A stretch of 64,000 nt of DNA from Halomonas piscis (GTDB taxonomy: Bacteria > Pseudomonadota > Gammaproteobacteria > Pseudomonadales > Halomonadaceae). Positions 2,938 to 25,492 of this stretch are shown one piece after another. Position numbers and translations under genes: made by a program. Position 1 is the stretch's first letter, and each line of letters begins with the position of its first letter. The stretch is from assembly GCF_031886125.1 (NCBI RefSeq), contig NZ_CP119391.1, positions 930,001 to 994,000 on the forward strand, read 5' to 3'. The notes beneath the pieces were generated by a model, which was not told where the DNA came from, did no database searches, and saw only the letters and a list, made by a program, of their open reading frames with translations.

Positions 2938-3513
2938 ATGTACGTTTTCTTGGGAGCTGTTATCGGTGCGGTTGCCGCATACATAACGACAAAAATAACA
3001 GTTAGAAATCAGGTAAGGATTGCTGAGATTACTGCCCAAAAGGATGTTGCTCTTCAATCAGATAGATTGCTGCATGAGCGTGTTATGGCAGAAGTGGCCA
3101 TTGAGAGAGAAGAGTTAAGAAAAATGCATGCGATATTGTCAAGAGTTTCGCTAGAGACATCTCTAACTATGAGTTATATGCAGTCTGATAATAACATGAA
3201 ACTCCATGAGTTTCGGGATAGATATGTAGAGAGCTGTCATCGGCTTCATGAGGCTAAAGCCATTTCAGATATTTATTATCCTGAGATGAGTGATTCTGTC
3301 TGCAAGATTTATGGGCAAGCTAATGTTTTCTGGGGGCACCAAGAGAGCGTTTTGCGAACTGATATTAAAGATGAAAGAGGCGTATGGGAAACTAGTTTGT
3401 CCAAAGTGATTAAAACGGGAGATGAAATATCAAGCTATTCTCGCGTTCTTCAAGAAAAGATAGCTACTCGTGGAAAAGAGCTGAAGAATGCGGTGGGGGA
3501 GAAAATTGATTAA
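2938..3513 (+). CDS. Membrane-anchored hypothetical protein
   Basis: I do not recognise this 191-residue protein. It starts with one hydrophobic segment (residues 3-15, FLGAVIGAVAAYI), followed by a long charged, probably helical region with much Glu, Lys, Arg and Gln. That suggests a single membrane anchor with a cytoplasmic coiled coil. The ATG at 2938 follows AAGGAG with almost no spacing, so the original start may lie elsewhere. The IS30 right end is only 15 bp upstream, so the native promoter or N-terminus may be lost. The gene is much more AT-rich than its neighbours, which suggests foreign origin. Confidence 0.6.
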   Translation: MYVFLGAVIGAVAAYITTKITVRNQVRIAEITAQKDVALQSDRLLHERVMAEVAIEREELRKMHAILSRVSLETSLTMSYMQSDNNMKLHEFRDRYVESCHRLHEAKAISDIYYPEMSDSVCKIYGQANVFWGHQESVLRTDIKDERGVWETSLSKVIKTGDEISSYSRVLQEKIATRGKELKNAVGEKID

Positions 3514-5094: not shown

Positions 5095-5167
5095 AACTCA
5101 AGCGGCGCGGAACGGGGGTGATGGCCCCGACCGCGCCTAACCACGACTGCCTGCATAGGAGGCATCC

Positions 5168-5491
5168 ATGGCTAACAAACAGGGTATCACACCCGCCTAC
5201 ACCGATAGTGGGCTGTCGCGGCTGTACCGGTCACACGCGGTCGAACAGCATGCCATCCAGAGCGAGATTCGAGCTCTGGTGATCATCGCCGGCTACGCAA
5301 GCGATTTTCTGACCGAGGAGTTGGAAATCCTTCCCGAGGATTTCTTCACCTGCATCGAGGAGATGAAAGAGGTGATGGAGTCCATCGACTTGAAAAGCCT
5401 GGATTTTGAAAAACGGTCGCTCACGCTCCAGAGAACGAAGCGGCGTCTGGAGGCCAAGGCGACCCGCCAGAATCGTCAAAAGGAGGTTTGA
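5168..5491 (+). CDS. Hypothetical protein next to T4SS genes
   Basis: The product is 107 residues, mostly helical and charged, with no signal peptide or membrane segment. A strong site (AGGAGG, 5 bases before the ATG) supports the start. It ends 2 bases before the virB5 start codon, and the virB5 ribosome site lies inside its 3' end, so the genes form one operon. I do not recognise a family; proteins of this size and place are often transfer-region accessory proteins. Confidence 0.6.
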   Translation: MANKQGITPAYTDSGLSRLYRSHAVEQHAIQSEIRALVIIAGYASDFLTEELEILPEDFFTCIEEMKEVMESIDLKSLDFEKRSLTLQRTKRRLEAKATRQNRQKEV

Positions 5492-12993: not shown

Positions 12994-13848
12994 GGCCTGT
13001 TGACGTTTCATGGCAGGGGTATTGGCAGGATAGGGGCAAGCTCGCAGAATAAAGGTTCCCACACCAACAAACTGCAAGCCTGCCATGCCCCGACAAATGC
13101 TCACGGATGAACACTGGTCGAAGCTGAAACCTATCCTGCTTCAACAAGGTATTTATGACAAGGCCGACTTGCGTACCACGATAGAAGGCATCCTTTATCG
13201 GATGCGCACCGGCTGCCCGTGGCGGGACCTACCGGAGACGTTTGGCCCCTGGAACACGGTCTACAAGCGTTTTAACGCCTGGTCAGCGAGTGGAAAGCTG
13301 ATGAGGCTTTTCAGCTCTCTGGTGGAGGAGCCTGATGTTGAGTGGCTGTTCATTGATGGCTCCTACGTCAAGGCCCACCAGGACAGCACCGGAGCTGCCA
13401 CGGAAGACGCAGAAGCCATTGGCAAAAGTCGTGCAGGCAATACCAGCAAGATCCACTTGACCGTAGATGCCTATGGGCTACCGATAACCTTCAGAATAAC
13501 CGGGGGTGAGGTGCACGACAGCACGGAAGCCCGGGCATTGATTGACGATTTGCCAGCGGGTGATGCATTGGTGGCTGACAAGGGCTATGACAGCGAGCGT
13601 ATCCGTGAACAGATCGAAGCCAAGGGCATGGCTGCCGTCATTCCACGCAAACGCAACTCAAAGAAAGGAAATGCCAATCTGGACAGAGGCTTATATCGCT
13701 ATCGGCATCTGGTTGAGAATGCCTTTGCTCGATTGAAGCCGTATCGCGCCATCGCAACGCGTTACGACAAGCTCAAGCGAAACTACGAAAGCATGGTGGC
13801 CTTGGCCTGCGGCTTTTTATGGCTGCCCATGTGAAACGTCAACACGCC
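12994..13848 (+). mobile_element. IS5-family element, 855 bp, in hsdS
   Basis: The inverted ends read GGCCTGTTGACGTTTCA and, from the other side, GGCGTGTTGACGTTTCA. The target duplication CTAG is perfect (12990-12993 and 13849-13852). It is a different element from the 827-bp IS5 copies. Confidence 0.93.
13085..13834 (+). CDS. IS5-family transposase (single frame)
   Basis: This 249-residue DDE transposase is intact. It has the N-terminal domain (MLTDEHWSKLKPILL, GCPWRDLPETFGPWNTVYKR), the first Asp in FIDGSYVKAHQD, the second in LVADKGYDS and the Glu in HLVENAFARLKPYR. No frameshift is needed, unlike the 827-bp elements in this window. It is transcribed opposite to the hsdS gene it interrupts. 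Confidence 0.95.
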   Translation: MPRQMLTDEHWSKLKPILLQQGIYDKADLRTTIEGILYRMRTGCPWRDLPETFGPWNTVYKRFNAWSASGKLMRLFSSLVEEPDVEWLFIDGSYVKAHQDSTGAATEDAEAIGKSRAGNTSKIHLTVDAYGLPITFRITGGEVHDSTEARALIDDLPAGDALVADKGYDSERIREQIEAKGMAAVIPRKRNSKKGNANLDRGLYRYRHLVENAFARLKPYRAIATRYDKLKRNYESMVALACGFLWLPM

Positions 13849-14104
13849 CTAGGCTTCTTGATCTTCCCTTCTTTGACCAACCGGGCCTTTTCCTCGGCGA
13901 TACGGTCCAGTAGCGCGCTGGCGGGTTCGTCACTCGGGTCCTGCTGCACCAACTTGCCGCGCACAGCCAGCTCGAGGATCAGCTCGCGCAGCTTCTTGAT
14001 GCCGGTGAGCTCGATTTTCCCGTGGTTGCCTCGCCCAGTGCCGCTTTTGTGCTTCACGGCGCCGGTCCAGAGGTCGAGGTGCTCGGTGATCATCTCCTGA
14101 GCGC

Positions 14105-15610
14105 TCATGCCGGCTCCTCCGCTTGCTGCGGTTTGGTCTGGTCTTGCGGCTCATGACTGAGCGCATCGCCGAGCACGGTCTTCAGCTGATCACGCAGCTC
14201 CTGGGTCTCGGCCTGCTGGCGAGCGTATTGCGCGAGCAGCTCGTCCGGGTCGTGGCTGACCTGCTCTTCCTGCCAGGGATTCTTGATGTCCAGGTTGTAG
14301 TTGCGTGCCTTGATCTCATCGATGCAGACCTTCCAGGCCTGCTCGGTTTCCTTGCGGCTGGCGAAGCCGTCGGCCTCATCGCCCCACCAGTCGATCTCGG
14401 TGGCGAACTCCTCGGCGCGCATGGGCTTGGTCTTGCTGTAGTTCTTGTAGCCCTCGGGGTAGGGGTGCTCGTAGTACCACACCTGTTCGGTGGGCTGCCC
14501 CTTGGTGAAGAACAGCAGGTTGGTCTTGATGCCGGTGTAGGGGTTGAACACGCCGTTGGGCAAGCGAACGATGGTGTGCAGGTTGCACTCGCTGAGCAGC
14601 TTTTCCTTGAGGCGCGTCTTCATGCCCTCGCCGAACAGGAAGCCGTCCGGCAGCACAACGGCGGCGCGGCCGTTATTTTTCAGCAGGCGAATGAACAGCG
14701 CCATGAACAGGTCGGCAGTCTCACGGGTGCGGAATTCCGCCGGGAAGTTGTTCTCGATACCGTCTTCCTCGGTGCCGCCGAACGGTGGGTTGGCAACGAT
14801 CACATCGACCCGCTCCTTCGGGCCCCAGTCCCGGTAGGGACGGTTCAGGGTGTTGTCGTGACGAATCTGGCTGGGGACCTCGATGCCGTGCAGGATCATG
14901 TTGGTGGTGGCCAGCAGGTGCGGCAGCGGTTTCTTCTCCCAGCCGTAGATGCTGAGTTGCAGCGTCTGCTCGTCGGCGGGCGTCCGCACATAGTGGTTGC
15001 GCTTGTGCTCGATTGCACAGGTGAGGAAGCCGCCGGTGCCGCAGGCCGGGTCCATCACGCTCTCGGCAAGCTTGGGATCGACGCGGTTGACCATGAACTC
15101 GGTCACGGCGCGCGGCGTGTAGAACTCACCGGCATTACCGGCGCTTTGCAGGTCCTTGAGGAGCTGCTCGTACATGTCGCCGAAAGCGTGACGCTGCTGA
15201 GAGGCGTTGAAGTCGATGCCTTCTTGAATGCGGTTGATCACCTGGCGCAGCAGATGGCCGGACTTCATGTAGTTGTAGGCATCCTCGAACACGCTGCGGA
15301 TGACGGCGGCGCGGGCGTCGCCGCCGGCATCCAGCTGTTGCAGCCCGGGAAAGAGGGTGTTGTCGATGAAGCTCTTCAGGCCCTCGCCCGTCAGCCCCTC
15401 TGGATCGGCGGCCCAGCTGCTCCAGCGCAGATGTTCGGGGATGGGGCTGACGTAGTCGTCGTAGTCCAGCTCCCACTCCTTCTCGCGGTCATCGTAGATC
15501 TTCAGAAAAAGCATCCAGACCAGCTGGCCTATGCGCTGGGCGTCGCCGTCGACGCCGACGTCCTTGCGCATGATGTCCTGAATGCTCTTGATGGTGGTGC
15601 TGATGCTCAT
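14105..15610 (-). CDS. hsdM: Type I restriction-modification DNA methyltransferase
   Basis: The product is 501 residues. The N-terminal helical domain (IMRKDVGVDGDAQRIGQLVW) is followed by the AdoMet motif DPACGTGGF near residue 185 and the catalytic motif IVANPPFGG near residue 275. It transfers a methyl group to adenine N6 and forms the M2S methylase with HsdS, or R2M2S with HsdR. It starts 79 bp after hsdR and overlaps hsdS by 4 bases. All motifs look intact. Without a complete HsdS it cannot choose a target. Confidence 0.95.
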   Translation of the reverse strand: MSISTTIKSIQDIMRKDVGVDGDAQRIGQLVWMLFLKIYDDREKEWELDYDDYVSPIPEHLRWSSWAADPEGLTGEGLKSFIDNTLFPGLQQLDAGGDARAAVIRSVFEDAYNYMKSGHLLRQVINRIQEGIDFNASQQRHAFGDMYEQLLKDLQSAGNAGEFYTPRAVTEFMVNRVDPKLAESVMDPACGTGGFLTCAIEHKRNHYVRTPADEQTLQLSIYGWEKKPLPHLLATTNMILHGIEVPSQIRHDNTLNRPYRDWGPKERVDVIVANPPFGGTEEDGIENNFPAEFRTRETADLFMALFIRLLKNNGRAAVVLPDGFLFGEGMKTRLKEKLLSECNLHTIVRLPNGVFNPYTGIKTNLLFFTKGQPTEQVWYYEHPYPEGYKNYSKTKPMRAEEFATEIDWWGDEADGFASRKETEQAWKVCIDEIKARNYNLDIKNPWQEEQVSHDPDELLAQYARQQAETQELRDQLKTVLGDALSHEPQDQTKPQQAEEPA

Positions 15611-18458: not shown

Positions 18459-19235
18459 GTGAAAATAAACCAGCTGCTGCACAAGATCCCGTATGGCGCC
18501 GTCGTGACGACCGCCTGGCTCGCGTCACACGGCGTCACCTCGGATCAGGCGCGTAAGCTGGCCGGCAGTGGCTGGCTGCAGCGCGTGGGGTATGGCGCCT
18601 ACTGCCAAACGGGGGAGCCTCTTACCTGGGAGAGCGCTGTTTTCGCCTTGCAGGCGAGCGACGACACGGGCTTACCACCGCTTTGGCCGGGTGGCCAGAC
18701 TGCCCTCGCACTGCATGGCTTTTCCCACTATCTGCACATGGGGGAGCGCACGACGCACCTGTATCGCAAGGAAGCCGTTCGGCTGCCCCGTTGGTTGAGT
18801 GATGCCGAGTGGGCAGGGCGGATGATGCTTCACTCCGAAAAGGGCCTGCCGGTGCAGCTTCCCGGCAGCTTCACGGACTACGCGCCGGATGGCAGGGCCT
18901 TCAGCTTGCAGGTATCGACCCCCGAACGAGCGGCCCTGGAGTGGATCGCCGCGACGCCGAATGAGCTGCTGTTCAGCAGTGAGCTGGTGGATACCTTCGG
19001 CGGGCTCAATACGCTGCGTCCGCGCCGGCTGCAGGCATTGCTGGAGGGATGCCGTTCGGTGAGAACCAAGCGGGCCTTCCTGGTGCTGGCTCGCCACGCC
19101 GGGCATGCCTGGTACGCTCGCCTGGAACCACGCCGACTGAATCTCGGCAAAGGCAAGCGGCAGTTCTGCCAAGGCGGCAGGCTGGATAGGGAATATCACG
19201 TGACGGTGCCGGAGGCGTTCCTGCATGCCGATTGA
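18459..19235 (+). CDS. abiEi: AbiEi-like antitoxin of a type IV toxin-antitoxin pair
   Basis: The product is 258 residues. The N-terminal winged-helix part (LLHKIPYGAVVTTAWLASHGV, shown as residues 6-26 in part, then ARKLAGSGWLQRVGYGAY) and the longer C-terminal domain fit AbiEi. AbiEi represses its promoter and blocks the AbiEii toxin. The start is GTG. An inverted pair AAAGCGGCC (18368-18376) and GGCCGCTTT (18445-18453) precedes it and may be the operator. The gene overlaps the toxin start by 11 bases. The antitoxin is intact while the toxin is broken. Confidence 0.85.
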   Translation: MKINQLLHKIPYGAVVTTAWLASHGVTSDQARKLAGSGWLQRVGYGAYCQTGEPLTWESAVFALQASDDTGLPPLWPGGQTALALHGFSHYLHMGERTTHLYRKEAVRLPRWLSDAEWAGRMMLHSEKGLPVQLPGSFTDYAPDGRAFSLQVSTPERAALEWIAATPNELLFSSELVDTFGGLNTLRPRRLQALLEGCRSVRTKRAFLVLARHAGHAWYARLEPRRLNLGKGKRQFCQGGRLDREYHVTVPEAFLHAD

Positions 19236-19580
19236 AGCTCGCTACCACGAACAGGTCAGTCTGTTGGTCTCGCTGCTGCCATTTCTCAATGAAGAGCCGT
19301 GCTTCGCCCTCAAGGGAGGCACAGCCATCAACTTTTTCGTGCAGCCATTACCTCGCCTATCGGTCGACATCGACCTGGCCTACTTGCCGCTGGAGCCCCG
19401 TGACGAGGCATTGCGACGCTGTCGCGAGGCGCTGCAGCGACTGGCAGAGACTTTCAGCGCCCGACTGCCAGGTGTGCAGGCCGAGCTTCAGGATAATCGC
19501 CGGGACGAGCTGAGGATCCTGGTGCGCCCTGGGGCGTAGCCAAGTGAAGGTGGAGGTATCGCCCGTACTGCGTGGCACTC
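19225..19580 (+). pseudogene. abiEii: AbiEii-like nucleotidyltransferase toxin, frameshifted and truncated
   Basis: Residues 1-104 carry the nucleotidyltransferase core: LKGGTAINFF, then RLSVDIDLAYLP with the metal-binding Asp-x-Asp. The family is normally around 270-300 residues. Here the frame ends at 19537-19539, but a second frame continues just downstream as VKVEVSPVLRGTL, a conserved continuation, so a frameshift lies near 19535. The homology stops around 19580, shortly before the 475-bp repeats. The toxin is therefore dead twice over. Confidence 0.85.
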
Positions 19581-19665
19581 TGAACCATAGCGTTGCAGCA
19601 AGTACGAAATTAGGTAAAGGGCTTGCAATTCAGGATAAGCAGTGCGAGCTTGGGCATGCGTGCAC

Positions 19666-20761
19666 TCTCCACAATGCTCTTGGTGACGGAGACGTCAGAA
19701 GGCGTCGGTGACCGAGGATTGCTGGAGACCAGCGCCTCTTTCGAGGTGGCTGGCCGGATAGTCGCTGTCATGGCTCAACGCGAGCCAAGCGGCACCGGGG
19801 AGCGCAAGCAGTCCTTGGCCACTAGCTTTACCTTGACCGTTACTCTCCTCAGAATCGGGGCCTTCCGGGCGGTGATAGAGCTTAAATTTCGGCCAGGCTG
19901 TGACGGGTGGCATGCTCGGGACGGAGGCTGTCCGGCCGCTCCAGGAGCGCCGAAATGTCTGTCAGAGATGCTCCGAGAGCCCTGTTTCGGTCCTCGTTTG
20001 ACGCGGAGGCCCAAAAAGCTACTCTCCGCAAGGGGATCTTTAGTGGAGGCAGGCAGATGTTCGGAGGTTTCACCTGGGCATGCAAAAACGTGCCAACCGT
20101 TTGTCGCGGCTCTGCTGGACACTCGGGAAGGCGGCCCTCATCTCCACAATGCTCTTGGTGACGGAGACGTCAGAAGGCGTCGGTGACCGAGGATTGCTGG
20201 AGACCAGCGCCTCTTTCGAGGTGGCTGGCCGGATAGTCGCTGTCATGGCTCAACGCGAGCCAAGCGGCACCGGGGAGCGCAAGCAGTCCTTGGCCACTAG
20301 CTTTACCTTGACCGTTACTCTCCTCAGAATCGGGGCCTTCCGGGCGGTGATAGAGCTTAAATTTCGGCCAGGCTGTGACGGGTGGCATGCTCGGGACGGA
20401 GGCTGTCCGGCCGCTCCAGGAGCGCCGAAATGTCTGTCAGAGATGCTCCGAGAGCCCTGTTTCGGTCCTCGTTTGACGCGGAGGCCCAAAAAGCTACTCT
20501 CCGCAAGGGGATCTTTAGTGGAGGCAGGCAGATGTTCGGAGGTTTCACCTGGGCATGCAAAAACGTGCCAACCGTTTGTCGCGGCTCTGCTGGACACTCG
20601 GGAAGGCGGCCCTCATCTCCACAATGCTCTTGGTGACGGAGACGTCAGAAGGCGTCGGTGACCGAGGATTGCTGGAGACCAGCGCCTCTTTCGAGGTGGC
20701 TGGCCGGATAGTCGCTGTCATGGCTCAACGCGAGCCAAGCGGCACCGGGGAGCGCAAGCAG
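19666..20761. repeat. 475-bp tandem repeat, 2.3 copies
   Basis: Unit 1 (19666-20140) and unit 2 (20141-20615) appear identical, and a partial unit 3 (20616-20761, 146 bp) runs up to 52 bp before the reverse transcriptase start. The period is exactly 475 bp. The unit is GC-rich, unlike the AT-rich reverse transcriptase gene. Frames inside it change phase from copy to copy because 475 is not a multiple of 3, and none looks like a gene. Each unit begins with a strong hairpin region. Confidence 0.95.
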
Positions 20762-20813
20762 CTGTGGTCGGGGTGGGTGACCGGAAGACCTCGTTCCCCA
20801 AGGGGGAGAAGAT
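20616..20813 (+). ncRNA. Candidate non-coding RNA leader of the reverse transcriptase
   Basis: This is the partial third repeat unit plus 52 unique bases directly before the reverse transcriptase ATG. A strong hairpin lies at 20679-20703 (CCAGC-G-CCTC, loop TTTC, GAGG-TG-GCTGG), with further GC-rich foldable sequence on both sides. Many stand-alone bacterial reverse transcriptases in defence use an RNA encoded just upstream. That this segment is such an RNA is inference. The same segment occurs three times because of the tandem repeat. Confidence 0.4.
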
Positions 20814-22064
20814 ATGCAAATTTACAAGGAGCTAAGTAAGTTTGCCACTTTAGAAAAGGCTTGGAAAAGCGTCAGGAAAAATGCTCAAGCTAGCAACTCA
20901 GCTAACAAGCCTAAAGGGTTAGATGAGTTTGAAGCAAATACGAGCTCCCGTCTAAAAAGCATCCAGTCAAGAATTGCTCGAAGAAGCTATAAGTTTCATC
21001 AGCAAAAAGGTGTCGTTCTGGAAAAAGAAAGTGGCGGATATAGGCCTATAGTTGTATATGCTTTAGAAGATAGGATTGTTCAGCGAGCTATACTCGATGT
21101 TCTCCAAGAAAATGTCCCTAAGGTAGAAGAGGTGTTGAGAACACCAACAAGCTTTGGCGCTATTCCTCAGGACTTTTCACCGAGTGGTCCTAGTGGTGTA
21201 AAAAATGCCATTGAAGAAGTGATGACCTATTCGAGAAAAGGTTACAGGTTTTTTTACAGAACTGATATACCCGGGTTTTTTACCAAGGTTGAGAAGAGAA
21301 GAGTTATAAGATTTATAGAGAATGAGATTGATGATTTTCTGTTCTTAGATATATTCAACAGAGCGCTGGATGTATCTATTGAAGGGGCTGAATCACTGAA
21401 AGAAGAGGTTTTTTCAATATTTCCAAGTGAAGAGCTTGGGATTAGTCAGGGGTCTTCTCTTTCTCCTCTTTTGGCAAATATATACTTATATGAATTTGAT
21501 CGAGCGATGATTGAATCAGAAAATTGTGTCTGCCTTCGTTATTTGGATGACTTGCTTATACTTTCAGATTCTAATGGTGGGTTGCAGAAATCGGTTCATC
21601 TTGCGAAAAGGAAGCTAGGAGAAATTGGTCTTTCAATATACTCTCAGCAAGATGGAAATAAAGAAAAGTATTCTTCTGGAGATCTCGCTAAAAGGTCTTT
21701 TGAGTTCTTGGGGTGTGATATTACTAACGGTAGTGTTATTCCCTCTAGAAAGAGCAAAGAAAGATTGCTAAGTAAGGTTGAGGCTAAATGTAGAAATTTT
21801 AAGTTTGGCCTTTCTATGATGGAGAAAGGAAGTGATAACCTCTCCATGACCTATCCTGAGTTTTTAGAGGGTGTCAGGCGGACTGTGTTGGGCTGGTCCA
21901 TGAGCTATCGGTTCTGCAATCATGAGCATTATTTTAAGAGTGTCGATAAAAAAGTTGCCGGGAAAGTGCAAGTTGTTGCTAATCAGGTTGGTAGGCTGTC
22001 AGGTAACGAGAAGTATTTTTCTTTAATGTATGGCATATCGACGCATAAAAACATTTTTGATTAA
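20814..22064 (+). CDS. Stand-alone reverse transcriptase (retron/DRT-like)
   Basis: The product is 416 residues. The reverse transcriptase core shows GGYRPIVVYALEDRIVQRA (residues 74-92), FYRTDIPGFF (147-156), ISQGSSLSPLLANIYL (210-225), the catalytic LRYLDDLLIL (241-250) and FEFLGCDI. A C-terminal thumb-like region ends near GWSMSYRF. There is no maturase, endonuclease or intron RNA domain, so it is not a standard group II intron protein. The layout is closer to unclassified or defence-associated reverse transcriptases. GGGGGAG lies 7 bases before the ATG. The gene is strongly AT-rich. The exact class cannot be decided by eye. Confidence 0.88.
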   Translation: MQIYKELSKFATLEKAWKSVRKNAQASNSANKPKGLDEFEANTSSRLKSIQSRIARRSYKFHQQKGVVLEKESGGYRPIVVYALEDRIVQRAILDVLQENVPKVEEVLRTPTSFGAIPQDFSPSGPSGVKNAIEEVMTYSRKGYRFFYRTDIPGFFTKVEKRRVIRFIENEIDDFLFLDIFNRALDVSIEGAESLKEEVFSIFPSEELGISQGSSLSPLLANIYLYEFDRAMIESENCVCLRYLDDLLILSDSNGGLQKSVHLAKRKLGEIGLSIYSQQDGNKEKYSSGDLAKRSFEFLGCDITNGSVIPSRKSKERLLSKVEAKCRNFKFGLSMMEKGSDNLSMTYPEFLEGVRRTVLGWSMSYRFCNHEHYFKSVDKKVAGKVQVVANQVGRLSGNEKYFSLMYGISTHKNIFD

Positions 22065-22076
22065 TATTGGTTTGTT

Positions 22077-22262
22077 TTAGGTTAGTTGTTTTTTGAGTGG
22101 TTTTCTGCTTTTCATAGTTGAGATTGGTGGTATTCTAGGGTTGTTCTTAATTGCTTCGTTCAAATGATCCGTCCACAAGTGGACATAGTACACGGTCGTC
22201 TGAATGGATTGGTGGCCCAGGATCTTCTGAAGTGTGAGCAGATTTCCATCGCTCATCATGAA
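22077..22262 (-). pseudogene. Tyrosine integrase C-terminal remnant
   Basis: About 60 residues read HFMMSDGNLLTLQKILGHQS, then TTVYYVHL, the last part of a phage-type integrase with the GH motif and the tyrosine region. The frame meets a stop just upstream, where the expected RHTFAS segment is replaced by unrelated sequence. It is a different integrase from the two fragments in the first 4 kb. Confidence 0.75.
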
Positions 22263-22410
22263 GTGGATCTATGGTAATTTTTGGTGCACGAGAGAAGGTG
22301 GGAATAGTGACATATCCTGTCGATTGATAAAGACCAAAAGCTCAATCAACACAAACGGATACGTCATGACCGGTTCTACCCTCTAGACTCTTTCACAACC
22401 AGAATCCTAG
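22263..22410. other. Intergenic sequence between integrase remnant and IS5
   Basis: No gene or clear repeat is visible here. The stretch probably contains the junction that truncated the integrase. Confidence 0.4.
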
Positions 22411-23237
22411 GGGGCGTTAACAATTAGGCCAGCCATATGGCGGCTGACACGAGGCAGAGGAGTGACTGGTAGTTTCTTGCCAGTCGCTCATAGCGTGTAG
22501 ATAACCGCCGGAACTTCTTGATTTTCTGAAAGAACCTCTCCACCAGATTGCGATCTTGGTAACAGTGCCAGTCTACTTCAATGCGCGCCAAACGATTCTT
22601 TTTCGGAGGAATCACCGGCTCGGCACCTGCGGCCTGAATCATGTCCCGCAGAGCAGTGGAGTCATACCCCTTGTCGCCCAGCACTGCTTGCGGGGAAAAA
22701 CCTTCCAGTAGAGCGGGAGCAGCACCATACTCCGACGCCTGGCCCGGTGTGAGAACCAATCGTACTGGGTTACCTAACGCATCGACTGCGGCATGAATTT
22801 TGGTGCTCAATCCGCCTCGAGATTTGCCCATGGCTTCGACGTCTTGCGTGTTTTTTTTGACGCTCCATGCTGGTGCACCCTGACGATGCTACCGTCGATC
22901 ATTAGCTGCTCTAGATCGGGATCGTCGGCTACTGTGTCAAAAATACGCTGCCAAACGCCCTTTCGTGACCAACGGTTATACCGCATGTAGACGGTGTGCC
23001 AGCGCCCAAAAGATTCGGGAAGATCACGCCACGGGGCGCCGGTCCGAGCGATCCAGAGCACGGCTTCCACGAACAGGCGATTGTCCTTGGCAGTTACCCC
23101 ACAGTCTGAGGCTTTGCCGGGGAGCAGGTGCTCGATTCGCTCCCACTGATCATCGCGTAACTTCAACCGACTCATGGCCCACCAAAATCTATGAATACTA
23201 AATCAGTTTAAACGAAACTAATGATTGTTAACACACC
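22411..23237 (-). mobile_element. IS5-family element (IS427-like), 827 bp, copy 2
   Basis: It is the same element as at 1375-2201 but inverted. The ends are GGGGCGTTAAC and GTTAACACACC, with perfect CTAG duplications at 22407-22410 and 23238-23241. Its perfect duplications suggest a fairly recent, simple insertion. Confidence 0.93.
22424..23175 (-). CDS. IS5-family transposase made by -1 frameshift, copy 2
   Basis: It encodes the same two overlapping frames as the copy at 1437-2188: the first at 23175-22807 and the second ending at 22424. The A-run that allows the -1 slip is conserved at about 22851-22858. Catalytic motifs (IDGSIVRVH, LGDKGYDS, LVERFFQKIK) are all present. The proteins of the two copies are identical as far as read. 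Confidence 0.88.
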
Positions 23238-23661: not shown

Positions 23662-24552
23662 ATGCCTTTAAGTACGACACAGCTTTCGGCGCTTTCTCGC
23701 CTTTTCTCATCGAGTGTTTTCCGAGAGTTGGCAAGAAAGGGGCGTTCCCCACTATTTGCTCGGTTGTTTGCCGAGACTGGGTTGTTGAGTCGATATACGG
23801 TTGCTGGTGGTACTGTGAGCTCTGCATTTGAATCTGCATTCGCAGCATTGCGAAAGTCTGGAATTCGTGACGAGTATGTGTATCGTGCAGCATTGACTCA
23901 TAATATCCTATTGGGGCGTCACTCTCTTAATACGGCTAGCATGTTGACGGAGTTTCGAGTAGGTGCAAGTAAAGCCGATCTTGTTATATTGAACGGCACA
24001 GGCACTGTCTATGAGATAAAATCAGACAGGGATTCTTTGTTACGACTGAGCAAGCAAGTTGAAGATTATAAAAAAGTATTCTCCCATGTTTATGTGATAG
24101 CTGGCGAAGCGCACATTCCAGAGGTTCTTGATAGTACGCCAAATGATATTGGTGTAATGAGTCTTGTGCGATGGAATCGCATTCGCACCATTCGCAAAGC
24201 TGTTGACCGAACAGATTTGGTCTGTCCTGATGCTATTTTTCAGTCACTAAGAATGACTGAGGCTAGTGAAATATTGAAGAGTTTGAATGTAAAGATTCCA
24301 GATGTCCCTAATACAATGTTATGGGAAGCAATGCGCGCGTGTTTTTCGGATTTAACACCTGCCGATGTACACCAACAAATGGTTTGGACATTAAAGAAGA
24401 CGCGAAACTTATCAACACTTAGCTCTTTGGTTGACCAGTTGCCGACGTCGCTCCAACCTGCGGCACTTTCCATTAATGTACGTCGAGCGGATCACAATCG
24501 CCTGATCGATGCGGTGCATACTCCACTCTACAAGGCAATGGCTTGGAGATAA
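23662..24552 (+). CDS. sce7726-family protein with nuclease-like motif
   Basis: The product is 296 residues. Glu97 (TEFRV), Asp106 (SKADLVIL) and Glu118-x-Lys120 (VYEIKSD) form a PD-(D/E)XK-like pattern, so a nuclease role is plausible. The overall sequence fits the sce7726 family, which is usually encoded next to sce7725, as here 4 bases downstream. The family function is not established to my knowledge. The gene is AT-rich and lies in a defence island, so an anti-phage role together with sce7725 and the RES gene is a reasonable guess. Confidence 0.75.
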   Translation: MPLSTTQLSALSRLFSSSVFRELARKGRSPLFARLFAETGLLSRYTVAGGTVSSAFESAFAALRKSGIRDEYVYRAALTHNILLGRHSLNTASMLTEFRVGASKADLVILNGTGTVYEIKSDRDSLLRLSKQVEDYKKVFSHVYVIAGEAHIPEVLDSTPNDIGVMSLVRWNRIRTIRKAVDRTDLVCPDAIFQSLRMTEASEILKSLNVKIPDVPNTMLWEAMRACFSDLTPADVHQQMVWTLKKTRNLSTLSSLVDQLPTSLQPAALSINVRRADHNRLIDAVHTPLYKAMAWR

Positions 24553-24556
24553 CTAG

Positions 24557-25492
24557 ATGTACTACCCGTATTTTCGTGGAAAGCAGTTTGAGCTAGTTAC
24601 TATCCGTGAAATCGCAGAATTGTTGGCTGAGTCAGGATTCGTTCCGGTTATTGAGCCCGTAAAAGAGGCGTTAAATGGTTTGGAACGTACGCTACGTGCA
24701 ATATGTGATGCGCGAGGCCAAGTGATTGTTATCGTTAATCCTGGCTATGGCGACCATTCTGAAAACGGAGTGGATATTGCTGAACTACTGAATGATAAAT
24801 TTGCAGATGCGGACGGTGTGTCAGTAGGTGTGTTGTTAAAAAATGATATGAGTGTTGATGATGCTCTTGCGTATTATGAACAGCACAATGATAAGAAACC
24901 TTTCTTTATTCATGCGGGTTTCACAGAACCGAAGGCTTTAGCAGAGAGATTAGGCGTTGATCTGGATGATACACAACATATATTTGTAGCAGATCATGCT
25001 AAAAAGTTGTACCGGAAGCACTTTCGAGGCAGTCGCCGAATTCTACTGGACGATGGGTTTAGGCGCAGGAGAAATGCTGACCATCCAGAGTCTGAAGATT
25101 TTTCCGATCTTCATATTACTTATGAAGACGAGGGAATGGATGGTTTTGGTGACTTTCTTATTGTTGGAGATGATTATAGTGAAGGTGGCGGTCCGGCGTA
25201 TGCGGTCGCAATTCACTTAACATATATTGATCCTGACCGAGATGATGTGATGTATATTTATCATTTCGTTTCTATAACTAATGATACACCCACTAATCCG
25301 GCTGGTAAGTTTGGCCAAGCTCTTGAAAAGCTTATCGAAAAACTTGATTCCGGAGCGTCGAACTTGTTTGAAGGCGAGGCTATCAGAGAGTTTCGGGAGC
25401 TACACGCTAAAGGGCATTTTCCGGGCCTTGGGTATGTCAAGAAGCTCTCAATGAAGCATCATGTTGAAACTTTGGCAAATTATTTAGATTGA
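24557..25492 (+). CDS. sce7725-family protein
   Basis: The product is 311 residues, starting MYYPYFRGKQFELVTIRE, a start typical of the sce7725 family. The first 170 residues look like an alpha/beta barrel-like domain (FVPVIEPVK, VIVIVNPGYG, FFIHAGF), and GFGDFLIVGDDYSEGGGPAY follows near residue 195. It is translated 4 bases after sce7726 and 10 bases before the RES gene, so the three form an operon. Its function is unknown. The frame is intact. Confidence 0.78.
   Translation: MYYPYFRGKQFELVTIREIAELLAESGFVPVIEPVKEALNGLERTLRAICDARGQVIVIVNPGYGDHSENGVDIAELLNDKFADADGVSVGVLLKNDMSVDDALAYYEQHNDKKPFFIHAGFTEPKALAERLGVDLDDTQHIFVADHAKKLYRKHFRGSRRILLDDGFRRRRNADHPESEDFSDLHITYEDEGMDGFGDFLIVGDDYSEGGGPAYAVAIHLTYIDPDRDDVMYIYHFVSITNDTPTNPAGKFGQALEKLIEKLDSGASNLFEGEAIREFRELHAKGHFPGLGYVKKLSMKHHVETLANYLD

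What the first reader, a model, noticed from the sequence alone, without database searches (positions are those of the whole stretch)
19666..22064. Stand-alone reverse transcriptase behind a 475-bp tandem repeat
Seen: an intact 416-residue reverse transcriptase with YLDD and no intron or maturase domain, preceded by 475+475+146 bp of apparently identical tandem repeats. The last partial unit ends 52 bp before the start codon and contains a strong hairpin. Known: several antiviral reverse transcriptases and retrons copy a structured RNA encoded just upstream, and one class (DRT2) makes concatemeric cDNA. Inference: the repeat unit includes the template RNA gene, and the genomic tandem array may be an expansion of it or even captured concatemeric cDNA. 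I know of no described system with this layout.
Basis: partly seen in the sequence, partly recalled or inferred. Interest (0 to 1): 0.88.

Follow-up and report, generated by a model that had tools for sequence, protein, structure and literature searches.

The report
Split gene beside a reverse transcriptase
In front of a little-studied family of bacterial reverse transcriptases lies what looks like a small gene cut into two overlapping halves, arranged so that copying its RNA into DNA with one jump between two identical repeats would make it whole.

Summary
In detail: three identical 146-bp repeats (475+475+146 bp) precede an intact stand-alone reverse transcriptase (RT). The RT's closest solved relative is the G2L4 (group II intron-like) RT.

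The repeats belong to a conserved layout. In 48 of 68 usable loci of this RT clade (several phyla) a direct repeat R, usually 100-161 nt, flanks a spacer X upstream of the RT: R1-X-R2-RT. Within a locus R1 and R2 are 95-100% identical, yet R diverges between loci. A covarying helix joins the bases after R1 to those after R2. X carries a promoter-like site, ribosome site and start (N). One reading frame is open through both N-R2 and R1-X1 in 45 of 46 loci, encoding a small protein with a hydrophobic N-terminus. Two-copy genomes thus hold this gene as two overlapping halves; N-R-X1 becomes continuous only after an R-to-R jump.

Best reading (inferred, about 50%): the RT copies an R-X-R RNA and switches template at R, retrovirus-like, assembling the gene as DRT2 assembles neo. 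The three-copy window already encodes it whole, which DNA recombination alone could also produce. No expression or cDNA data exist. My literature searches found no description.

The parts
19666..19811 (+). R1, first copy of the 146-bp direct repeat
   Evidence: Exact matches at 19666, 20141 and 20616; TRF array
19812..20140 (+). Spacer X, first copy; its first part continues the R reading frame (X1), its last part holds promoter-like site P2 and start region N
   Evidence: same layout in 50 loci
19813..19822 (+). a1, 5' strand of the predicted long-range helix (10 pairs incl. 3 G-U) with 20764-20773; a second copy of a1 lies at 20288-20297 by repeat identity. A longer alternative pairing (19827-19840 with 20764-20777) also exists
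   Evidence: Pairings; covarying helix in other loci
19998..20025 (+). Predicted promoter P2 (TTGACG, 16 bp, TACTCT); second copy at 20473-20500
   Evidence: TTGAC in this stretch in 40 of 46 loci against 5.3% of shuffles
20057..20059 (+). ATG with a Shine-Dalgarno-like GGAGG, in the frame from which a -1 shift leads into the long ORF
20080..20095 (+). 16-mer ATGCAAAAACGTGCCA (start region N, possible slippery site); second copy 20555-20570
   Evidence: of 75 clade loci, 16/16 in 9 (window included) and 15/16 in 4
20080..20661 (+). Full N-R-X1 ORF, 193 aa; contiguous in the genome here because the unit is duplicated
   Evidence: no Pfam or PHROG match
20141..20286 (+). R, second copy
20287..20615 (+). 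Spacer X, second copy
20555..20839 (+). N-R3 ORF running past R into the leader and overlapping the RT start (94 aa), corresponding to the half gene of two-copy genomes
20616..20761 (+). R, last copy, directly before the RT leader
20762..20813 (+). Leader of the RT gene; holds a2 (20764-20773), the 3' strand of the predicted helix
20814..22064 (+). Reverse transcriptase, 416 aa, YLDD, closest to G2L4 RT
19225..19585 (+). 5' remnant of abiEii (frame broken near 19533), where the cassette joins
   Evidence: tblastn of relatives' abiEii ends at 19585 in 4 of the 5 loci given

Best explanation
The cassette is an RT-driven gene-assembly system. Seen in the sequences: the RT gene is preceded by R1-X-R2 with near-identical R copies; the bases after R1 and after R2 form a covarying helix; X holds a promoter-like site (P2), a Shine-Dalgarno start region and the N-terminal codons (N); one frame is open through N-R2 and through R1-X1. 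Inferred: a promoter before R1 makes an RNA that begins at R1, so the RNA is terminally redundant (R...R). The RT starts downstream of R2, copies R2, X and R1 to the RNA's 5' end, and the cDNA 3' end (complement of R) re-anneals to R2, as in retroviral strand transfer. The jump places X1 after N-R, giving P2-N-R-X1: a complete gene for a protein of about 100-190 aa with an N-terminal hydrophobic segment, in many loci apparently read by a -1 frameshift at an AAAAAC site before a hairpin. By analogy with DRT2/Neo the product is probably a growth-arresting effector switched on by phage (no direct evidence). In two-copy genomes only the halves are encoded. The window has an extra unit, so the whole gene is already present.
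For: Layout in 48 of 68 usable clade loci; any direct repeat in 1 of 66 downstream controls; the layout in 0 of 15 further RT loci outside the clade and its sister pair. Four of 7 loci found later, outside the discovery set, show repeat, helix and split ORF. R identity among 16 alpha loci averages 85% between and 99.8% within loci. Helix: 34 representatives, mean 25.6 against 17.1 for mismatched loci, 0 of 5000 permutations; RNAalifold finds an 11-bp helix there in 18 alpha loci. Split ORF open in 45 of 46 against 15% of shuffles; hydrophobic 17-mer in the ORF frame in 43 of 44 against 1 and 2 of 44 in the other frames, and alpha-clade pN/pS 0.50 (R) and 0.63 (X1) against 0.99-1.35 in other frames. 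TTGAC of P2 40 of 46 against 5.3%. Frame phase 33 of 34. In DRT2 an upstream RNA is copied into repeats that assemble a toxic ORF (PMC12039810 and PMC11100668, passages).
Against: No RNA, cDNA or protein data. G2L4 RT of P. aeruginosa is published as a double-strand-break repair enzyme (PMC12337344), not a defence RT. The window and L063 have the extra unit, and in the window the full ORF is genomic, which argues against strong constitutive toxicity or needs silencing. The window has no convincing promoter before R1 (shuffle p 0.74); singly, only 12 of 49 loci beat shuffles at 0.05. Clustering of predicted starts at R1 is moderate (30 of 45, against 10 of 45 before R2 and 20 of 45 in a stretch 70 nt upstream). 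In 12 of 45 loci the genomic N-R2 frame has no stop before the RT match, and minus-strand frames are open in 28 of 46. Coding bias of X1 is clear only in the alpha clade; for window against L018, R shows none. 20 of 68 loci lack the repeat. Ten of 44 loci lack the A5 motif. The AAAAAC sites are preceded by C, G or T, not the strongest slippery type (recalled).
Confidence: 0.5

Rival explanations
1. DNA-level switch: homologous recombination between R1 and R2 excises an R-X circle or adds a unit. The circle, or the three-copy state, carries the whole P2-N-R-X1 gene, and the RT is only a neighbour or helper (phase variation).
For: One-, two- and three-copy states all occur: ten loci have R and the RT leader once, and L064 keeps the promoter-like stretch that precedes R1 in its relative L065; three copies in the window and L063. 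No RT is needed to make these states.
Against: Does not explain the covarying helix across the spacer nor why the layout tracks an RT. Single-R loci have broken RTs more often, 4 of 10 against 3 of 49 flagged (relatedness ignored), which hints that the RT needs the unit.
Confidence: 0.2
2. Retron-like or regulatory RNA: the helix encloses a structured RNA (X-R2) that primes or regulates the RT. R1 is a duplicated leader, and the short ORFs are leader peptides rather than halves of one gene.
For: The helix resembles retron a1/a2 pairing (recalled); RNAalifold gives -124 for the alpha alignment against a mean of -58 for 20 column shuffles; a Shine-Dalgarno start shortly before the A5 motif is common, 28 of 34.
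Against: Does not predict one shared open frame on both sides of R (45 of 46), synonymous bias in R and X1, or the hydrophobic segment confined to that frame.
Confidence: 0.15
3. cDNA copies of R-X are written back into the chromosome (retrohoming or break repair by this G2L4-type RT), expanding the array and keeping R1 and R2 alike; the window is such an event.
For: Concerted evolution of R; perfect identity of the three copies in the window; G2L4 RT joins DNA ends by microhomology (PMC12337344, abstract, one section and passages).
Against: Only two three-copy loci were seen; recombination gives the same pattern; R1/R2 mismatches show no diagnostic bias.
Confidence: 0.1

Closest known systems
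G2L4 (group II intron-like 4) RT of Pseudomonas aeruginosa (PDB 9d4s, 9d5x; PMC12337344)
   Same: Best match among solved structures, over residues 2-397 of the window RT; stand-alone; the RT3a plug region aligns with a single one-residue gap.
   Different: Window has YLDD where YIDD is called distinctive of G2L4; the plug arginines appear to align with K and E here. The upstream R-X-R and split ORF do not appear in what I saw of that paper (passages and one section); the 2026 G2L4 preprint has no hit for upstream, repeat, ncRNA, noncoding or phage.
DRT2 / Neo
   Same: An RT beside an upstream RNA region; template jumping at repeated sequence assembles an ORF that the genome does not hold in order (passages).
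   Different: Different RT family; jump homology about 130 nt instead of 3 nt (ACA); unit 321-475 nt and divisible by 3 in only 3 of 50 loci, against all of 42 DRT2 homologues in PMC12039810; a finite ORF in most loci; P2 is intact in the genome.
DRT10 (tandem-repeat DNA from an ncRNA; PMC12632851, start of abstract in search listing only)
   Same: Repeat-guided cDNA synthesis by a bacterial RT.
   Different: No split protein gene is mentioned in the part of the abstract that I saw.
Retroviral R-mediated strand transfer (recalled)
   Same: Identical repeat at both ends of the RNA lets cDNA switch template.
   Different: No integrase or LTR cycle is evident; an upstream cassette of a cellular RT.
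Retrons (recalled)
   Same: Pairing of sequences flanking the RNA before an RT gene.
   Different: RT far below the retron model cut-off (55.7 bits against 235); long direct repeats.

Membership tests
G2L4 RT | Sequence closest to G2L4 rather than other RTs with solved structure | tested here: met
   227 bits to 9d5x/9d4s against 65 bits for the next, Cas6-RT-Cas1
G2L4 RT | YIDD active-site motif | tested here: not met
   Window has YLDD. First motif found is YIDD in 61 of 92 RT loci examined (outgroups included), YLDD in 7. Hence 'G2L4-like'
G2L4 RT | RT3a plug with 9-aa insertion and R190/R191 | tested here: inconclusive
   The region aligns with one one-residue gap, but the arginines appear to align with K and E
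G2L4 RT | Microhomology end-joining activity | not testable with these tools
   Needs biochemistry
DRT2/Neo | Drt2-type RT | tested here: not met
   49 bits against curated cut-off 390
DRT2/Neo | Repeat unit divisible by three, near-endless ORF | tested here: not met
   3 of 50 units divisible by three; the joined frame ends inside X or R in most loci
DRT2/Neo | ORF in order only after template jumping | tested here: met
   Frame open in both halves in 45 of 46 loci; by sequence only, and three-copy genomes such as the window hold it in order
DRT2/Neo | Jump reconstitutes a promoter | tested here: not met
   The P2-like site lies intact inside X
DRT2/Neo | Phage-triggered concatemeric cDNA | not testable with these tools
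   Needs infection and sequencing
Group II intron | Intron RNA (e.g. domain V) and a maturase-class RT above cut-off | tested here: not met
   No Rfam match at E<=1 in 19500-22500; 150.6 bits against cut-off 300
Retron | Retron-type RT | tested here: not met
   55.7 against 235 bits for the best retron model
Retron | Flanking a1/a2-like helix | tested here: met
   Helix similar in position, not proof of msr/msd
Diversity-generating retroelement | Adenine-biased differences between the two repeats | tested here: not met
   45 R1/R2 differences over 50 loci: 11 with A in R1, 10 with A in R2

The most novel reading that the evidence does not exclude
G2L4-clade RTs are not only repair enzymes. They run a second, independent kind of RNA-templated gene assembly, in which a gene stored as two overlapping halves is joined by a retrovirus-like strand transfer between repeats of about 130 nt, then read through a -1 frameshift into a small membrane-targeted effector. 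A second, distant RT clade (L091, L092) shares the repeat layout.
Probability: 0.4. Interest if true: 0.95.

Novelty: new variant of a known kind. Interest (0 to 1): 0.87.

Why it matters
It would make gene assembly by reverse transcription a recurring strategy with a second, independent architecture, and link a bacterial RT to the strand-transfer logic of retroviruses. It would also question what G2L4 RTs, so far studied as DNA-repair enzymes, do in their native loci. The layout is visible in about 50 of the loci examined, so it can be tested directly. Even if the cDNA step is wrong, a conserved split gene with homogenised repeats beside an RT needs an explanation.

Tried and rejected
A single-protein search of genome contigs and of viral contigs with the window RT found no relative; an alignment query did. 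Phage records gave no match at E 1e-20. Plasmid records gave, for the region's DNA, four records that match only the stretch downstream of the RT, and one RT. Of 369 and 390 genomes sampled at class and order level, few carry a relative.

DGR-like mutagenesis rejected: differences between R copies are not adenine-biased. Group II intron remnant rejected: no Rfam match. The exact 16-mer in viral contigs (8 stretches) was not followed up beyond the contig that also gave L100. A first X1 coding test was not properly aligned and is replaced. The paper that first reported G2L4 repair activity was not looked up; what I say of it comes from PMC12337344.

Rows dropped: near-duplicates L033, L074, L100 (L021 also, except in 57); L021, L091, L092; L019, L073, L074, L021, L092 in the hydropathy count. 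In one search a few rows (L019, L073, L074) were taken in a frame that later looks wrong; redefines frames by hydropathy. In one search, 12 named rows (broken, partial or duplicate RTs among them) and rows with more than one internal stop were left out, giving 81. L106 and L110-L113 were not analysed.

Full report
THE OBSERVATION. The array at 19666-20761 is exact: period 475, 2.3 copies, 100% identity. R copies are 19666-19811, 20141-20286 and 20616-20761. The RT (20814-22064, 416 aa, YLDD) is intact. The window lies in a 3.23-Mb single-contig genome in which the repeat occurs only here. The cassette joins the 5' remnant of abiEii: in 4 of 5 relatives' loci given, abiEii aligns to 19585 and no further. 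Next to it are abiEi and a type I restriction-modification system.

THE RT. The best solved matches are G2L4 RTs of P. aeruginosa, 227 bits over residues 2-397; the next is 65 bits. It is far below the curated cut-offs for group II intron maturase, retron and Drt2 models. G2L4 is published as a double-strand-break repair enzyme (PMC12337344: abstract, one section and passages). YIDD is called distinctive of G2L4 (PMC4244168, passages); the window has YLDD, so I call it G2L4-like.

THE LAYOUT IS CONSERVED. Relatives came from the genome search, PLSDB, genome contigs (79 loci) and viral contigs (14 loci). I counted 75 loci in the clade, of which 7 have under 250 nt upstream. Of the 68 left, 48 have a direct repeat with spacing 321-475 before the RT (L021 has only 42 nt, L019 and L074 59 nt, the rest 100-161 nt). 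The 48 include the near-duplicate pairs L018/L033, L019/L074 and L020/L100. In the 1500 nt downstream, 1 of 66 clade loci with at least 1000 nt held has any direct repeat (L050, 32 nt). Of 17 RT rows outside the clade, the sister pair L091/L092 has the layout and 15 do not; one of these, L101, has a 39-nt repeat at spacing 1073. The layout occurs in Pseudomonadota and in metagenome-assembled genomes labelled Bdellovibrionota, Myxococcota, Zixiibacteriota and Bipolaricaulota.

CONCERTED REPEATS. In 30 of the 50 repeat loci R1 and R2 are identical; the minimum is 94.7%. Among 16 alpha loci, R averages 85% identity between loci and 99.8% within. Ten loci without the repeat hold one R followed by the RT leader; L064 (Acetobacter) also keeps the promoter-like stretch that precedes R1 in L065. 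Four more (L035, L042, L058, L077) show partial R similarity, L042 only at E 0.001; the other six of the 20 are unresolved. The window and L063 have three copies. Single-R loci have broken RTs in 4 of 10, against 3 of 49 flagged repeat loci (Fisher p 0.012; relatedness ignored; counting the four weaker single-R loci and L026 it is 4 of 15, p 0.047).

AN RNA SIGNATURE. Bases just after R1 (a1) pair with bases just after R2 (a2), in different sequences at different loci. Over 34 representatives the mean helix score is 25.6, against 17.1 for a1 and a2 of different loci; 28 of 34 reach 22, against 155 of 1122; 0 of 5000 permutations reach the real sum. RNAalifold on 18 alpha loci finds an 11-bp helix at this place, mostly invariant within that set. 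In the window the homologous helix is 19813-19822 with 20764-20773. Predicted sigma70 start sites fall within -7 to +5 of R1 in 30 of 45 loci, against 10 of 45 before R2 and 20 of 45 in a stretch 70 nt further up; singly, 12 of 49 loci beat shuffles at 0.05, and the window does not. This is moderate support.

A SPLIT GENE. X contains TTGAC at -175 to -75 of R2 in 40 of 46 loci (shuffles 5.3%), usually with a -10-like hexamer, then a start region (N). One frame is open through 51 nt of N plus R2 and through R1 plus 99 nt of X in 45 of 46 loci, against 15% of shuffles; minus-strand frames are open in 28 of 46. Near the N/R border that frame encodes a hydrophobic 17-mer in 43 of 44 loci, the other frames in 1 and 2 of 44. 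In 16 alpha loci pN/pS is 0.50 in R and 0.63 in X1, against 0.99-1.35 in other frames; smaller clades are weaker or neutral, and window against L018 shows no bias in R. In the genome the N-R2 frame stops by 48 nt after R2 in 33 of 45 loci; 12 have no stop before the RT match. The P. aeruginosa half is annotated as a 195-bp hypothetical gene. The window's joined ORF (20080-20661) matches no Pfam or PHROG family.

POSSIBLE FRAMESHIFT. Of 44 loci examined, 34 have an A5 motif 40-76 nt before R2; in 33 of these the long frame is -1 relative to the AAA-AAC reading. A start with a Shine-Dalgarno-like match lies in the AAA-AAC frame in 28 of 34, and the long frame has no start of its own at or before the motif in 20 of 34. 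The 34 nt after the motif fold into a hairpin in most loci (no shuffle control). A programmed -1 shift fits, but the slippery sequence is not the strongest known type (recalled).

OUT-OF-SAMPLE CHECK. A later search of 378 genomes in the genus of the L021 genome gave 8 hits, 7 of them new. Four (L127-L130, close to each other) have R 133-134 nt, unit 485, helix score 29.5-32.5, a joined ORF of 130-187 aa, and a genomic frame that ends 0-1 nt after R2. Two (L126, L131) show no repeat and one (L132) is cut by its contig. A search of 374 genomes in the family of the L063 genome gave only L063 itself.

MECHANISM. A terminally redundant R-X-R RNA, strand transfer at R, and assembly of P2-N-R-X1 explain repeat identity, helix position, the promoter tendency at R1 and the split frame together. 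DRT2 is the nearest precedent: its units were divisible by three in all 42 homologues examined there, and it jumps at ACA motifs (PMC12039810, PMC11100668; passages). Here 3 of 50 units are divisible by three. The cDNA step, the effector role and any link to phage are inference. Homologous recombination could make the same joined DNA, and is the main rival.

LITERATURE. The listings of searches show no paper on repeats or a split ORF upstream of G2L4 RTs. The 2026 G2L4 preprint (PMC13015716) has no hit for upstream, repeat, ncRNA, noncoding or phage. The library holds open-licence papers only.

Noticed in passing
window 13085-14108: A transposase-like ORF (13085-13834) sits between the two parts of a type I specificity subunit, so the restriction system is probably altered. 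The ORF's transposase identity is read from its sequence, not from a family search.
   Followed up: no
window 5103-5175: R1162-like plasmid antisense RNA (Rfam RF00043) in a chromosome-sized contig, suggesting an integrated plasmid remnant.
   Followed up: no
window 23662-25489: Two adjacent genes without a Pfam match at E 0.01; the first matches a PADLOC 'cll' model at 70 bits.
   Followed up: no
L091 (RT at 3001) and L092 (RT at 3001): A distant RT clade in Comamonadaceae has 141- and 139-nt direct repeats at spacing 357 and 369 before the RT, with short a1/a2-like pairing of 6 and 8 bp.
   Followed up: partly
L127-L130, X region: X is longer (351-352 nt) and holds extra A5 motifs, as if the N region had been duplicated.
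   Followed up: no
L037, L039, L047, L050, L052, L057, L066: The stored DNA ends within 250 nt upstream of the RT match, as expected if short-read assembly breaks at the repeat.
   Followed up: no
window 22424-23175: Two ORFs that read like an IS-type transposase lie just downstream of the RT; not searched against a family library.
   Followed up: no
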